From Bacteroidota bacterium (GTDB lineage Bacteria > Bacteroidota > Bacteroidia > UBA8524), in the NCBI GenBank assembly GCA_016124735.1, contig WGMZ01000012.1:1-62601 (forward strand): 62,601 nucleotides of DNA, written 5' to 3'. The translations under genes were made by a program, and so were the position numbers. The notes under the pieces were generated by a model. That model was not told the DNA's origin and ran no database searches. It was given only the letters and a program-made list of their open reading frames with translations. Below are positions 54,881 to 61,420 of this stretch, piece by piece. The stretch's first letter is position 1. Each line of letters opens with the position of its first letter.

Positions 54881-56233
54881 ATGAGTAAAAGTAAAGGATG
54901 TATCTTAATTGTAGATGATGAAGATGATTTAAGAAGCTTAATGGCTAAGGTGCTGGAGCTGGAAGAATTTAAGGTATATACTGCAGCTACCCCCGCTCAG
55001 GCGATGCATATACTGGACAATAAAACGATCGAAGTAATCATCAGCGACGTGCGTCTGGAAGTGGCCAATGGCCTGGATTTAATTCCTGAATACAAAAAGC
55101 GCAAGCCCTTTGCTCAAATTATTATGCTCACTGCTTATGGGAATATTCCGGATGGTGTGAGTTCCATCAAACGCGGGGCATTTGATTACCTCACCAAAGG
55201 CGATGATAATATCCGGATTGTTCCGGTTGTTGAAAAGGCCATCGAGATGGCCCGGCTTTCCAATAAAATTTTCAAGCTCGATGCAATAGAGCCCAGCAAG
55301 GGATTTGATTCGGTAATTGGCGAGAGCAAAGCCTTGAAAAACGCCATCAAGCTAGCAACACGGGTGGCGGGAGCGGATTTAAGTGTTTTATTGACCGGCG
55401 AAACAGGAACCGGAAAGGAGGTTTTTGCCAATGCCATCCATCAGGCAAGCAAGCGATGCAAGAAGCCATTCATGGCACTCAACTGCTCTGCTCTGGGAAA
55501 AGAATTGCTTGAAAGCGAACTATTCGGACATGTGAAAGGAGCTTTTACCGGAGCTAACGGAGATAAAACAGGATTTTTCGAAGCGGCGAATGGAGGAACA
55601 TTATTTCTGGATGAGATCGGGGAGATGAGTCTGGATCTGCAGGCTAAATTGCTTCGCGTACTCGAAACTTCCATGTATTATATGGTGGGAAGCACCAAAG
55701 AAAAGAAAGCAGATGTGCGCATTATTGCAGCAACGAACCGTGATTTATTGGCTGAATCGGAAAAAGGCAATTTTCGACTCGATTTGTATTACCGCCTGAG
55801 CACTTTCGTAGTAAACCTTCCTCCATTGAATGAGCGGGGAGACGACGTGATCATCCTTGCGAAATACTTTGTTAAACAAGCCGCTGACCGGATGGATATG
55901 CCCGAACCCGAGCTGAGCAAAGAGCTGCAAACCGCATTGAAAGGACATGTATGGAAAGGAAATCTCAGGGAGTTAAAGAATGTGATGGAGCGAGCTTTGA
56001 TTCTGAGCGATGGGGAGGAAATGGGAAGCGAATTGCTCCCTCCGGAGTTTGGAGAACATGCATCTGAAAGAACCTTGGTTCGCCCTAACGCGCCGGTAGA
56101 CTTATCAAGTCTTGAAAAGGATCACATTTCCAACATGTTGGCCTTTACGGGCGGCAACAAAACCAAGACAGCCGAGATTTTGGGAATTGGTGTAGCTACA
56201 CTCTATCGAAAAATTCAGGAATACGGACTTTGA
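54881..56233 (+). CDS. Sigma-54-dependent response regulator (NtrC family)
   Basis: A 450-residue activator. The receiver domain (1-120) has D56 (IISDVRLE). The AAA+ domain has Walker [16 protein letters not shown], the sigma-54 contact loop GAFTGA ([21 protein letters not shown]), Walker [13 protein letters not shown] and the arginine-finger region [22 protein letters not shown]. The C-terminal Fis-type HTH is [25 protein letters not shown]. In Bacteroidota kdp loci a regulator of this kind comes before kdpFABC. Here a hybrid kinase is divergent and a HAMP kinase follows, so either may be its partner. Confidence 0.94.
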
Positions 56234-56416
56234 TCCTATCAATCTGAAAGAAGACTCTATCAAAATGATAGACTTCGATTTTTTGGCACAGTTGAGGGAT
56301 AATTGATTTTTTCCCTGTTTATGGGCCTGCCGAAAGATTCGATAAAGGAAGATTGGATTGGCATGTTTTTTCGAATTACTGAAGTGAACTAGCGAATGAG
56401 TTCTTACATACAGGGA

Positions 56417-56424
56417 TAGGTTTG
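56417..56424 (+). promoter_or_regulatory. TAnnTTTG -7 box before the structured RNA
   Basis: TAGGTTTG at 56417-56424 is a perfect match to the Bacteroidota -7 box. A -33 TTG is not present; ATG at 56396-56398, 18 bp upstream, is the nearest candidate. The box lies inside a long inverted repeat (AGTTCTTAC about 56399-56407 with GTAAGAACT about 56438-56446), which itself may be a structure. Confidence 0.35.
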
Positions 56425-56476
56425 GATAGGTTACCTAGTAAGAACTTCGAGTAGACCGCCTCGTTCAACTAAAATT

Positions 56477-56572
56477 AAAAAACAGGTTATCAGTCCTTTC
56501 GGTTGCAGGGAACCTTACCAAGGATTATAACTTTGACGTAAGCTTTTAATCCGGGCTGGTACCTGTTTTTTT
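56477..56572 (+). ncRNA. Candidate structured leader RNA with terminator
   Basis: A three-way junction can be drawn by hand. P1a pairs AAAAAACAGGT (56477-56487) with ACCTGTTTTTT (56561-56571). P1b pairs CAGTCC (56491-56496) with GGGCTG (56553-56558). P2 pairs GGTT (56501-56504) with AACC (56511-56514). P3 pairs GGATT (56522-56526) with AATCC (56548-56552), with an inner CTT/AAG stem around TGACGT. P1a runs directly into the T-run, so closing P1 would end transcription. This fits a riboswitch, attenuator or small RNA. It matches no class that I recognise. Confidence 0.5.
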
Positions 56573-56599
56573 ATTAATCACAGACTAATCCTTTGAATC

Positions 56600-56758
56600 A
56601 TGGTGAAGAAAGGCAAACAGTCGGCAAACCAAAAGCGAGTCACTTACACTCAACTCAACTGGGTGGAAGTGAAAATACCAGAGTCAATCGCCTCCTGGAT
56701 GCCTTCACCAATATTCAAAACGAGCAAACATAGATTGAACCCCTTCGCTCGACATTAA
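56600..56758 (+). CDS. Small ORF after the structured RNA
   Basis: A 52-codon ORF (MVKKGKQSANQKRVTYTQLN...), basic, without a membrane segment. It lies 28 bp after the predicted terminator. It may be a real small protein, but nothing is recognised. Confidence 0.25.
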   Translation: MVKKGKQSANQKRVTYTQLNWVEVKIPESIASWMPSPIFKTSKHRLNPFARH

Positions 56759-56780
56759 TCCTAAAAATGAACCAAAAATT

Positions 56781-56867
56781 ATGCAATGGAAAATCTGGTT
56801 TACGTTAACCGTTATCGTGGGCATGGCAGCTACAGTATTGCTGACATTGTTCTACCGTCGTGATTAA
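56781..56867 (+). CDS. 28-residue single-helix membrane peptide
   Basis: A very short ORF (MQWKIWFTLTVIVGMAATVL then a short tail ending FYRRD) encodes one hydrophobic helix with a positive C-terminus. It stops 24 bp before the HAMP kinase start. In size and place after a kdp-type activator it recalls KdpF, but the sequence does not match KdpF as I know it. Confidence 0.45.
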   Translation: MQWKIWFTLTVIVGMAATVLLTLFYRRD

Positions 56868-56891: not shown

Positions 56892-58736
56892 ATGAATTGG
56901 GGCTTATCCGACTTCAGTATTAAAACACGAATCCAGCTGGGAGTTTCTGCTTTCTTGCTGGTTATCGTGGTTTTAGGCTCCGCGAGTATTTACTATTTGC
57001 GTGAGATTCAGAAGAATGCAGAGTCCATTTTTACCAGAAACTATCAGCTGCTCGTAAAGAGTCAGCAACTGGATCAGTACGCCTATAAATTCCGGGTCGA
57101 CTGGCTCGATTTTTCGCGGGGCATCTTAAATAATAAAGATGCAATCGGAAAACTGTATGCGGGAATTTTTGAGATGGATTCCATTCTTATTTATCAAAAA
57201 CATCTATCACAAGGAGAAGTACAGCCTAAGATGATGGATTCTGTGCAGTTTGCCCTGGATCAGTTAAAGGGGGCATTTCGTCAAATCAGGTTTGTTGGAA
57301 GTTTCGATACAGCGGCGGTTACCCGAAAGGTATTTCATGATCTTGATCTGCTTTTAACCGTTAATGAGAGTCTAAGCGAAACGCTGAGGAACGACGTGCT
57401 TAGCCGATACAATAAAACCAAGTCGAGTGTGAATCAGGTTATTACCATCATGGTTGTATTGACAGTCAGTTTGTCGGGATTAGGCTTCATCATGCTATGG
57501 TTGATACCGGGCTATATTGTTGGTCCTTTGCATGAATTGGCCGAGAGGATTAATCGAATAGGCGACAAGGATTTCAGTCAGAGGATGAAAGGGCTCAATA
57601 AAAGCGATGAGTTTGGTGTACTGGCCCAGGCTTTTAACCGGATGGCCAATCAACTGAATGAATTTGAGCAGATGAACATTACGGAGTTGGTCAAAGAAAA
57701 GCAACGGATAGAAGCCATTATTGGTAACCTCAATGAAGCCATTGTGGTAACCGATGAACATAACCTCGTTATTTGGATCAATGAGCAAGCCGAGACCTTA
57801 TTTGGACTTCCGAGACTGTCGCTATTGGGAAAGGTTTTTAAAGATATTCGCCCATTGAATTTTAGCAAAGACGCCCTGATTTCTCAACCCAATGAGAAGG
57901 GTACCTCGTTGTTTAATTTTAGTGCACGCATTGGCGATCGAACCAAATATTTTCACAAGGAAGAAATTCGGGTAGGATCACTCTCAGCATCCGAAGCTAC
58001 CGAATCAGCAGGAAAGGTGATTATTTTTTATGATATCACGGACTTCCGGGAATTGGACATGGCAAAAACGAATTTCATGGCCACTTTATCGCATCAGTTC
58101 AAAACCCCTATTTCGGCTATGAATATCAGTTTGAACTTGCTGGACAATCCGAAAGTGGGTCAACTGAACGAAGAACAAAAAAACCTGATAGGCACCCTTC
58201 AGGCGCAAAATGAGCGCTTGCTGAACATGGTGAATGAACTTCTCGATCTCGGACAAATTGAGACGGGTAAAATCCGCCTCTTGAAAGAGGAGATTTCCGC
58301 ACAGGAATTGGTCAATCATAGTTTGAGTACCATACGGACTATTTTAGAGAACAAAGCACTCAATGTCGAATGTATTTACGAAGAAGATTTGCCGGACCTC
58401 GAAGTGGATTTGGAGAAAATCACCTGGGTTTTGAATAATCTCTTAACCAATGCGGCACGCTATTCTCCGGAAAAGGCACAAATTCATGTGGAAGTAAAAA
58501 AACAAAAGAAACAATTACTTTTTTCTGTTCGTGATGAAGGCCCGGGAATTGAAGAAGCGCTTCTATCCAGGATATTTGAAAAATATCAAAGAAATAAGTT
58601 CGATAAAAGCATGGGTACAGGACTGGGTTTGGCCATTGCAAGAGAAATTATTGAGGCCCATAAGGGTAAAATAAATGTAGAGAGCAAACTGGGGTATGGC
58701 AGCCGTTTCTATTTTACGCTCCCTTATTCGTCGTAG
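56892..58736 (+). CDS. HAMP-PAS sensor histidine kinase
   Basis: A 614-residue kinase. Membrane helices at about 13-33 and 184-206 enclose a four-helix periplasmic sensor. Then come HAMP (about 207-258), PAS (about 270-385) and HisKA with H401 (ATLSHQFKTPISAMN), followed by the ATPase ([45 protein letters not shown]). In many Bacteroidota kdp loci a HAMP kinase of this form follows the KdpD-like gene. The end overlaps convergent era by 13 bp. Confidence 0.93.
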   Translation: MNWGLSDFSIKTRIQLGVSAFLLVIVVLGSASIYYLREIQKNAESIFTRNYQLLVKSQQLDQYAYKFRVDWLDFSRGILNNKDAIGKLYAGIFEMDSILIYQKHLSQGEVQPKMMDSVQFALDQLKGAFRQIRFVGSFDTAAVTRKVFHDLDLLLTVNESLSETLRNDVLSRYNKTKSSVNQVITIMVVLTVSLSGLGFIMLWLIPGYIVGPLHELAERINRIGDKDFSQRMKGLNKSDEFGVLAQAFNRMANQLNEFEQMNITELVKEKQRIEAIIGNLNEAIVVTDEHNLVIWINEQAETLFGLPRLSLLGKVFKDIRPLNFSKDALISQPNEKGTSLFNFSARIGDRTKYFHKEEIRVGSLSASEATESAGKVIIFYDITDFRELDMAKTNFMATLSHQFKTPISAMNISLNLLDNPKVGQLNEEQKNLIGTLQAQNERLLNMVNELLDLGQIETGKIRLLKEEISAQELVNHSLSTIRTILENKALNVECIYEEDLPDLEVDLEKITWVLNNLLTNAARYSPEKAQIHVEVKKQKKQLLFSVRDEGPGIEEALLSRIFEKYQRNKFDKSMGTGLGLAIAREIIEAHKGKINVESKLGYGSRFYFTLPYSS

Positions 58737-59676: not shown

Positions 59677-59752
<76 letters not shown>

Positions 59753-60169: not shown

Positions 60170-61420
60170 ATGATGAATCATAACACCCGTTATTCAATTG
60201 GTAATATCACCATTAGTAAGAAAGATGTAAATGTTCTTGTCTTCAATGATAGCCCTGAATTAAACTCGATACTTCAAGAAAGTATGGATAGAGATTGTAT
60301 GTGTTCATATAATGGAATTCCGACGAGTCTTCACTTATATATGAAGGCTAGAGTAGACCAATATTTGGATTCAAAATTGAAGTCTTTAGTAAATATTCAC
60401 ACATCTCCAGGAGAATACAAAGAGAAGTTTACTTGGAATTGGAATCTTGAGTCAAATGAATTTACTATAAATAATATAAAGCCCTCCAAAGTGATTATAG
60501 AATACGATATTCAATATTCTGTAACTGACGAGGTTCAAGAAACTTATGACGGGGAAAATTCGGTGCTCGAGAATCGGTTGATTTGTTATTTTGATTTATT
60601 AGGGTTTAAAAACATTGTAAATCAAGTCGGAGTTAAAAGAGTTCACGCTCATTATTTGTCGTTGATTGAAAAAATTAAAGTACGAACAGAACAATTTGTA
60701 AGTCATGAAACTTCGCCTCATCCAATTGAAAGGTTTAAAGTCTTTTTTGATTCAATTGTTATTGTTTCTGGTCCAACAGATTCAGTTCAGTTGGTAAATA
60801 ATTTCATTTTTTCTTGTATAGAAACGCTTGAGGAGGGATTCTCAATGGGATTTCCAATGCGAGGAGCAATAACTAAAGGAGATTATATCGATCACAAGGA
60901 AAGCAATCTATTTGTAAGTGATAGCTTTAATAGTTTAACAACGATTGAACAAAGTCAAAATTGGTGCGGATGTATTATTTCTCCTGAAGCAGAGGAGTTT
61001 ATAAGCAAAAGCATTTATGGAGAACAATGGCCGACAAATGTTACAAGCGAGAATCCGCTAATTCGTTATTCAGTCCCCATTAAGGATAAATTTCAGAAGT
61101 TGAATCCAAAAGTTGAATTTTTATGCCTCAACTTTTCATATTTCCTGAGTGTGCATGAGAAGGAGTCTGGACTGAAACACATGGAGGGCGACAAAGATAA
61201 AATGGAGAATACCAGAGATTTTATTGATTATGTGGATTCTATTTACAAAGACCCAATCAAATTGGGCCTATACTATTTGAAAGTAATGAAATCCCAATCT
61301 GGATTTAGATATAAATATGTCAGTGAATATGGTCAGCGCATAATTTCTAATCCACCACAGATTGTTTCAATTGGAATCTTGCATAAAGGAGAGACTACTC
61401 CTTTTAAAATTGTGATTTAA
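60170..61420 (+). CDS. Orphan protein with class III nucleotidyl-cyclase-like core
   Basis: A 416-residue protein, visibly more AT-rich than its neighbours. Residues 1-125 match nothing I know. From 138 on, LICYFDLLGFKNIV puts D142 where class III cyclases have their first metal aspartate. KVFFDSIVIVS puts D194 at the second, and FPMRGAITKGDYI matches the strand-turn after it. Similar stand-alone proteins include cyclic-pyrimidine (Pycsar) type cyclases, but no membrane or TIR effector gene is next to it. Two Mets at the start (60170, 60173) leave the exact start open. It is the only full gene of the islet between the two tRNA-Met repeats. Confidence 0.65.
   Translation: MMNHNTRYSIGNITISKKDVNVLVFNDSPELNSILQESMDRDCMCSYNGIPTSLHLYMKARVDQYLDSKLKSLVNIHTSPGEYKEKFTWNWNLESNEFTINNIKPSKVIIEYDIQYSVTDEVQETYDGENSVLENRLICYFDLLGFKNIVNQVGVKRVHAHYLSLIEKIKVRTEQFVSHETSPHPIERFKVFFDSIVIVSGPTDSVQLVNNFIFSCIETLEEGFSMGFPMRGAITKGDYIDHKESNLFVSDSFNSLTTIEQSQNWCGCIISPEAEEFISKSIYGEQWPTNVTSENPLIRYSVPIKDKFQKLNPKVEFLCLNFSYFLSVHEKESGLKHMEGDKDKMENTRDFIDYVDSIYKDPIKLGLYYLKVMKSQSGFRYKYVSEYGQRIISNPPQIVSIGILHKGETTPFKIVI

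What the first reader, a model, noticed from the sequence alone, without database searches (positions are those of the whole stretch)
56399..56572. Unassigned structured RNA with a built-in terminator after a sigma-54 activator gene
The 96-nt element folds by hand into a three-way junction whose closing stem runs into a T-run, the layout of a transcription-terminating riboswitch. A second inverted repeat (9 bp, with a perfect -7 box in its loop) lies just upstream. The position in a kdp-like regulatory region hints at an ion or second-messenger signal. I do not recognise it as a known class.
Basis: partly seen in the sequence, partly recalled or inferred. Interest (0 to 1): 0.58.

Follow-up and report, generated by a model that had tools for sequence, protein, structure and literature searches.

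The report
Sigma-54-driven RNA beside its activator gene
Between two bacterial signalling genes lies a real, evolutionarily constrained RNA of about 190 bases that is probably switched on by the neighbouring activator protein, ends in its own stop signal, and appears able to base-pair with a second small RNA encoded elsewhere in the genome.

Summary
In detail: 56474-56577 folds far better than shuffles (z -4.7), the P1/P3 stems and the upstream stem are re-sequenced but preserved in relatives, and Rfam has no match. The riboswitch reading is not supported: I found no conserved competing antiterminator and no ligand evidence, and the region is not kdp-like. Best reading: a ~188-nt transcript (RNA1, ~56385-56572) from a sigma-54-type promoter (56359-56374), 95 bp downstream of paired TATCA-N3-TGATA sites, probably bound by the NtrC-type activator encoded just upstream. 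It carries a closed 5' domain, a linker and a terminator domain with an invariant GGUUGCAGGGAA core, and lies upstream of a 28-aa peptide and a histidine kinase. Following the promoter motif uncovered a second RNA (RNA2, between asnS and ppx, plus a paralogue) whose 39-nt 5' region pairs with the RNA1 linker and the peptide-kinase leader: the two best of 12,512 windows scanned, with the best site in the same leader region in 4 of 4 genomes. It works like CrcZ/NrsZ/GlmY/Qrr circuits; no homology to them was found. No transcript data exist, only four genomes carry it, and pairing is computed, not shown.

The parts
54881..56233 (+). NtrC-type response regulator / sigma-54 activator (EBP): receiver, Sigma54_activat with GAFTGA, Fis-type HTH
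   Evidence: Pfam; 83% and 70% identical orthologues in G001 and G004
56236..56250 (+). upstream activator-like site 2, CTATCAATCTGAAAG
   Evidence: one mismatch to CTATCANNNTGATAG; 21 nt before site 1
56257..56271 (+). upstream activator-like site 1, CTATCAAAATGATAG
   Evidence: present in 4 of 4 RNA1 loci at 95, 95, 96, 96 bp from the TGGCA box
56359..56374 (+). sigma-54-type promoter TGGCATGTTTTTTCGA (-24/-12; -12 is TTCG, not TTGC)
   Evidence: RpoN present
56385..56572 (+). RNA1: predicted transcript from +1 (24 nt after the GG) to the end of the U-run
   Evidence: inferred from promoter spacing; fold
56385..56389 (+). P0 5' strand (UGAAC), pairs with 56463-56467 (GUUCA)
   Evidence: MFE of G000 and G002 (UGAAC/GUUCA) and G001 (GAAC/GUUC):
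56399..56407 (+). 5' stem, 5' arm
56411..56433 (+). conserved loop CAGGGATAGGTTTGGATAGGTTA (four spaced GG runs)
   Evidence: identical in 2 of 3, one inserted A in G002; not in G004
56438..56446 (+). 5' stem, 3' arm
56455..56471 (+). linker ACCGCCTCGTTCAACTA: predicted RNA2 pairing site; includes the P0 3' strand
   Evidence: second best of 12,512 windows for RNA2; duplex; cofold
56477..56496 (+). P1 5' strand
56500..56519 (+). invariant core CGGTTGCAGGGAACCTTACC (P2 loop region)
   Evidence: GGTTGCAGGGAA also in G004
56522..56527 (+). P3 5' strand (pairs with 56547-56552)
   Evidence: 5 of 6 pairs changed on both sides
56547..56552 (+). P3 3' strand
56553..56572 (+). P1 3' strand and terminator U-run
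56740..56781 (+). predicted RNA2 pairing site in the leader of the 28-aa ORF, includes ATGAACCAAAAATTA at 56767-56781
   Evidence: best of 12,512 windows; duplex -39.0 kcal/mol
56781..56867 (+). 28-aa ORF, MQWKIWFTLTVIVGMAATVLLTLFYRRD, probable membrane peptide
   Evidence: 89%, 82% and 46% identical in G001, G002, G004
56892..58736 (+). sensor histidine kinase (HAMP, PAS, HisKA, HATPase_c)
   Evidence: Pfam; 73, 74, 57% identical orthologues

Best explanation
RNA1 is a transcribed, self-terminating structured RNA. Step 1 (inferred): the phosphorylated NtrC-type activator encoded at 54881-56233 binds the paired TATCA-N3-TGATA sites and opens the sigma-54 promoter at 56359-56374. Step 2 (inferred from sequence and covariation): transcription starts near 56385 and mostly stops at the P1 hairpin/U-run near 56572, giving a ~188-nt RNA with a closed 5' domain, an accessible linker and a conserved terminator domain; read-through would supply the mRNA of the 28-aa peptide and the histidine kinase. 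Step 3 (computed, not shown): a second small RNA from another locus (RNA2, with a sigma-54-type promoter motif) base-pairs with the RNA1 linker and with the peptide-kinase leader. RNA1 would then be both the leader of its own signalling operon and a decoy for RNA2, forming a feedback loop around the two-component system.
For: Covarying structure in 4 species and an independent model hit in G004, not used in building (E 3.5e-6). Conserved order activator-RNA1-(0 to 2 ORFs)-28-aa ORF-kinase-era in G000, G001, G004; G002's short contig shows the same order as far as it reaches. Constant 95-96 bp activator-site-to-promoter distance in 4 of 4. RpoN found in 4 of 5 family genomes. The 5' domain of the three genus members closes with a helix at or within 3 nt of the predicted +1. 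RNA2 conservation starts at its own predicted +1: 39 identical nt in three genomes of two genera. Unbiased duplex scan: the top two of 12,512 windows in the window are the peptide leader and the linker; G001 top two, G002 ranks 1 and 3, G004 rank 1 lie in the same leader region. Co-folding: RNA2 opens P0 and leaves the terminator intact, ddG -10.9, -11.0, -9.1 kcal/mol (G001's RNA2 was used for G002).
Against: No transcript, start-site or binding data. The -12 box is TTCG instead of TTGC, and the G004 promoter (GG-N9-GC) fits poorly. RNA2a also carries a -7-like box (TATATTTG in G001), so its promoter class is uncertain. In G004 the RNA2 site lies after the terminator, not in the linker. Duplex energies of -34 or lower occurred in 5 of 70,980 control windows, two of them the antisense of the RNA2 paralogue. 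TATCA-N3-TGATA genome-wide is only slightly above its control (8 vs 5 in G000). RNA2 was not looked for in G002.
Confidence: 0.6

Rival explanations
1. Purely cis: RNA1 is only the 5' leader of the peptide-kinase operon, a structured attenuator; there is no trans-acting small RNA function, and RNA2 simply regulates the leader.
For: In G001 only ~22 nt separate the U-run from the 28-aa ORF start, leaving no room for another promoter; RNA2 sites lie in the same leader region in 4 of 4 genomes.
Against: The intrinsic terminator is conserved in 4 of 4 and no alternative antiterminator is conserved; RNA2 pairing leaves P1 intact in co-folds.
Confidence: 0.25
2. A riboswitch or protein-responsive terminator: the invariant GGUUGCAGGGAA-N-UU core binds a small molecule or protein that stabilises P1.
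For: Aptamer-like pattern: re-sequenced helices around an invariant unpaired core; P1 is also the terminator stem.
Against: No Rfam match; no conserved competing structure; found in only four genomes; no CsrA in 5 genomes for a GGA-binding decoy role.
Confidence: 0.12
3. An ordinary terminator hairpin plus unrelated palindrome, conserved only by recent common ancestry.
For: Three of the four sequences are one genus; model R1 also gives weak hits to ordinary terminators in other families.
Against: Compensatory change in both P1 and P3, including a second genus at 57-70% protein identity; long invariant unpaired blocks.
Confidence: 0.03

Closest known systems
CrcZ (CbrAB, Pseudomonas)
   Same: RNA in the intergenic region just downstream of a sigma-54 activator gene, RpoN-dependent, activated by that response regulator (PMC8395346, passages read)
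   Different: No sequence or Rfam relation; CrcZ is 407 nt and an Hfq decoy; Hfq was not tested here
NrsZ (NtrBC, Pseudomonas aeruginosa)
   Same: Encoded in the ntrC-PA5126 intergenic region, RpoN/NtrC-dependent, ~226 nt full length (PMC8395346, passages read)
   Different: Base-pairs with rhlA mRNA; no sequence relation found; different phylum
GlmY with GlrK/QseG/GlrR (QseEGF), enterobacteria
   Same: sRNA gene linked to its kinase and sigma-54 activator; in P. mirabilis glmY-qseE-qseG-qseF form an operon with QseF sites upstream (PMC8745638, abstract and passages read)
   Different: Order differs, no GlmY sequence or Rfam match; GlmY is a decoy for RapZ (start of abstract of PMC7073468)
Qrr sRNAs under LuxO, Vibrio
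   Same: sRNAs activated by an NtrC-type regulator (table of PMC7602753); that they are sibling, sigma-54-dependent copies and feed back on their own circuit is recalled. Here RNA2a and RNA2b share a 5' region
   Different: No sequence relation; the regulator of RNA2 is unknown

Membership tests
Known RNA class (any Rfam family) | score at or above the family's gathering threshold | tested here: not met
   Searches (window; RNA2; relatives): only tRNAs reach threshold
Terminating riboswitch | conserved aptamer-like core enclosed by covarying helices | tested here: met
Terminating riboswitch | conserved mutually exclusive antiterminator | tested here: not met
Terminating riboswitch | ligand binding | not testable with these tools
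   needs in-line probing
Activator-adjacent sigma-54-dependent sRNA (CrcZ/NrsZ/GlmY-like architecture) | lies next to the gene of a sigma-54 activator | tested here: met
   same in G001, G002, G004
Activator-adjacent sigma-54-dependent sRNA (CrcZ/NrsZ/GlmY-like architecture) | -24/-12 promoter | tested here: inconclusive
   TGGCAY-N6-TTCG in 3 of 4 loci, 10 nt between GG and CG; G004 has GG-N9-GC. -12 is not the recalled consensus TTGC
Activator-adjacent sigma-54-dependent sRNA (CrcZ/NrsZ/GlmY-like architecture) | upstream activator sites at typical distance | tested here: met
   95, 95, 96, 96 bp in 4 of 4
Activator-adjacent sigma-54-dependent sRNA (CrcZ/NrsZ/GlmY-like architecture) | stable discrete transcript dependent on RpoN and the activator | not testable with these tools
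   needs RNA-seq or Northern in mutants
CsrB/RsmZ-type protein decoy | CsrA/RsmA present in the genome | tested here: not met
   0 of 5 genomes

The most novel reading that the evidence does not exclude
A two-RNA sigma-54 circuit in an uncultured Bacteroidota family: sibling small RNAs (RNA2a/b) pair with the leader of a two-component operon, while the operon's own activator drives a structured, terminated leader RNA (RNA1) whose linker soaks up RNA2, so that the kinase-activator pair controls its own translation through a decoy RNA with an unknown conserved core.
Probability: 0.3. Interest if true: 0.75.

Novelty: new variant of a known kind. Interest (0 to 1): 0.6.

Why it matters
Small-RNA regulation in Bacteroidota is thinly mapped, and the held-library searches named in the report listed no sigma-54-driven, activator-linked sRNA there. 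If right, this is an unnamed RNA family with its own activator, promoter class and antisense partner, found from genomes alone; it gives directly testable predictions (start at 56385, TTCG -12 box, RNA2 pairing at two sites).

Tried and rejected
Riboswitch with antiterminator: looked for alternative pairing of the P1 5' strand; none conserved. CsrA decoy for the GGA-rich loop: no CsrA. -7 promoter in the loop: no correctly spaced -33 TTG; a generic promoter scan found none (the same scan also did not flag the terminator, because its loop limit is 8 nt). Wider distribution: strict core pattern in 3 of 295 class genomes, all the same genus; model R1 in 295 class genomes gave the genus plus four weak hits that are ordinary hairpins or chance. 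That scan used strict filters and missed G004, which the fuller search finds, so absence from the class is not shown. Kinase scan of GTDB contigs returned only the same three relatives plus one distant kinase. Searching for the activator regulon by CTATCANNNTGATAG gave mostly coding-region chance hits but also a DUF4382 lipoprotein promoter. Hfq was not tested. Literature searches with no relevant hit: (68, 100 and 101 returned no paper at all); sigma-54 promoters are reported in Flavobacterium psychrophilum as 'typical -24/-12' (PMC9723704, passages), motif letters not seen.

Full report
Observation. The element at 56474-56577 folds at -33.7 kcal/mol against a shuffle mean of -19.2 (z -4.72, 0 of 200). 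The full predicted RNA1 gives z -2.28 (7 of 200); the relatives give z -3.38 (0 of 200, G001), -1.93 (8 of 200, G002) and -5.51 (0 of 200, G004). The upstream palindrome alone is not exceptional. Rfam has no match in the window or in five relative loci apart from tRNAs.

Relatives. Of 60 genomes searched with the intergenic DNA (own genome included), only the two same-genus genomes matched convincingly besides the window itself. A third relative, G004 of another genus, was found through the 28-aa ORF; its intergenic region holds the same core GGTTGCAGGGAACATT, the terminator stem and P3 with different sequence. G003, also in the family, has no kinase match at E 1e-60, only ~40% identical activator paralogues, and no convincing RNA hit.

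Structure. On the 4-sequence model alignment 14 of 28 pairs carry changes on both sides, 96.4% of cells pair, no shuffle of 500 reaches any measure, and sliding the partner drops pairing to 38-53%. P1 has 9 and P3 has 5 such pairs; P2 has none. The alignment was fitted to the structure, and three rows built the model. The G004 row did not, and it was found independently (E 3.5e-6 in a five-genome search). The 5' stem has runs of 10, 10 and 11 bp in the genus, with 6, 10 and 30 of 5000 shuffles as long.

Promoter. Upstream, TGGCAY-N6-TTCGAAT is shared by the three genus members. Matches to CTATCA-N3-TGATAG, perfect in G000 and G004 and with one mismatch in G001 and G002, lie 95, 95, 96 and 96 bp before TGGCA in the four loci, although the sequence between is hardly alignable with G004. 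The upstream protein is a response regulator with Sigma54_activat and Fis-type HTH, and RpoN is encoded in 4 of 5 family genomes (not found in the 80% complete G002). Of 25 TGGCAYRN4TTSSW sites in three genomes, none has TTGC. The same activator sites and a TGGCAAGGCTTTCG box precede a DUF4382 lipoprotein gene in G000; the corresponding place in G002, after the same ABC-transporter gene, has the same layout (107 and 109 bp), but the contig ends there before the downstream gene can be compared. So the activator may have a second target. Predicted starts at +24 from the GG put the closing helix P0 (UGAAC/GUUCA in G000 and G002, GAAC/GUUC in G001) at or within 3 nt of the RNA's 5' end.

A second RNA. 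Two of the TTCG sites lie between asnS and ppx, beside rpoN, in G000 and G004. Fetching the same place in G001 gave a third copy. From +2 on, 39 nt (AGGATTAGTAATTTTTGGTTCATAGTTGAGCGAAGGCGG) are identical in all three, followed by a hairpin whose sequence varies. G003 lacks it at that place (its whole genome was not searched for it). A paralogue in G000 (L111, minus strand) shares ~25 nt and ends in a clear terminator. The RNA2a promoters also contain a -7-like box, so their sigma factor is open.

Pairing. RNA2's 39 nt were scanned against every 50-nt window (step 10, both strands). In the 62.6-kb window the two best of 12,512 are 56741-56790 (-36.5) and 56451-56500 (-36.3), the 28-aa ORF leader and the RNA1 linker. 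In G001 (3,138 windows) the top two are the linker and the RNA1 3' end just before the ORF; in G002 (772) ranks 1 and 3 are leader and linker; in G004 (1,792) the top is just after the terminator. In 112 control loci lacking RNA1 and RNA2a, 5 of 70,980 windows reach -34, two of them the antisense of the RNA2 paralogue; 36 loci were left out of that control because they hold RNA1 or RNA2a. The linker sites in the genus share ancestry and are not independent; the leader sites differ in place and sequence. Co-folding breaks P0, forms about 17 bp with the linker and keeps the terminator.

Reading. Shown: a constrained structured RNA; its conserved place; the constant site spacing; the complementarity. 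Inferred: transcription by sigma-54, activation by the neighbour, termination in vivo, RNA2 expression, direction of regulation. Terminated RNA1 as a decoy and read-through as kinase mRNA are compatible. In G001 the kinase operon start is ~22 nt from the U-run, so its expression must pass RNA1 or start inside it.

Known parallels. CrcZ and NrsZ lie next to their activator genes and need RpoN (PMC8395346, passages); glmY is linked to qseEGF (PMC8745638, passages); LuxO-Qrr is listed in PMC7602753 (table passage). None matches in sequence: no Rfam family hit was found (that CrcZ, GlmY and Qrr are Rfam families is recalled). Library searches for a Bacteroidetes sigma-54 sRNA found none (one search listed general ncRNA surveys, of which only PMC9723704 was opened, passages only).

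Noticed in passing
L142 4644-4710 (G000:C34), L147 5037-5102 (G001:C49), L146 minus strand (G004:C74): RNA2a: ~65-nt RNA between asnS and ppx near rpoN, 39 nt identical from the predicted +2 in three genomes of two genera, followed by a varying hairpin; no Rfam match.
   Followed up: yes
L111, minus strand, around 1425-1516 (G000:C24): RNA2b: paralogue of RNA2a with the same ~25-nt 5' region, TGGCATAAAGATTGGA upstream and a strong terminator.
   Followed up: partly
L139/L141 (G000:C6, ~182940-183090) and L144 (G002:C164): DUF4382 lipoprotein gene (G000) preceded by the same TATCA-N3-TGATA site and a TGGCAAGGCTTTCG box; same layout after the same ABC-transporter gene in G002: probable second target of the activator.
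   Followed up: partly
sites in G000, G001, G004: 0 of 25 TGGCAYRN4TTSSW sites have TTGC at -12; TTCG recurs at conserved places, suggesting a lineage-specific -12 element of sigma-54 promoters.
   Followed up: partly
56601-56760: Short ORF in the window looks like the decayed remnant of a ~120-aa gene that is intact at the same place in G002 (L040 minus strand ~2932-2593).
   Followed up: no
56781-56867: 28-aa probable membrane peptide conserved with the kinase in four genomes (46-89% identity), no Pfam match.
   Followed up: partly
56279-56290: A further TTTTGGCAY motif follows the activator site in all four RNA1 loci and in G002:C164 but has no -12 partner; role unknown.
   Followed up: no
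L143 1862 (G000:C43): TGGCATACTTTTTCGT box ~80 nt before a secreted-protein gene; in F. psychrophilum sigma-54 promoters include gliding motility genes (PMC9723704, passages).
   Followed up: no
60170-61420: 416-aa protein with no Pfam match downstream of the tRNA at 59677-59748.
   Followed up: no
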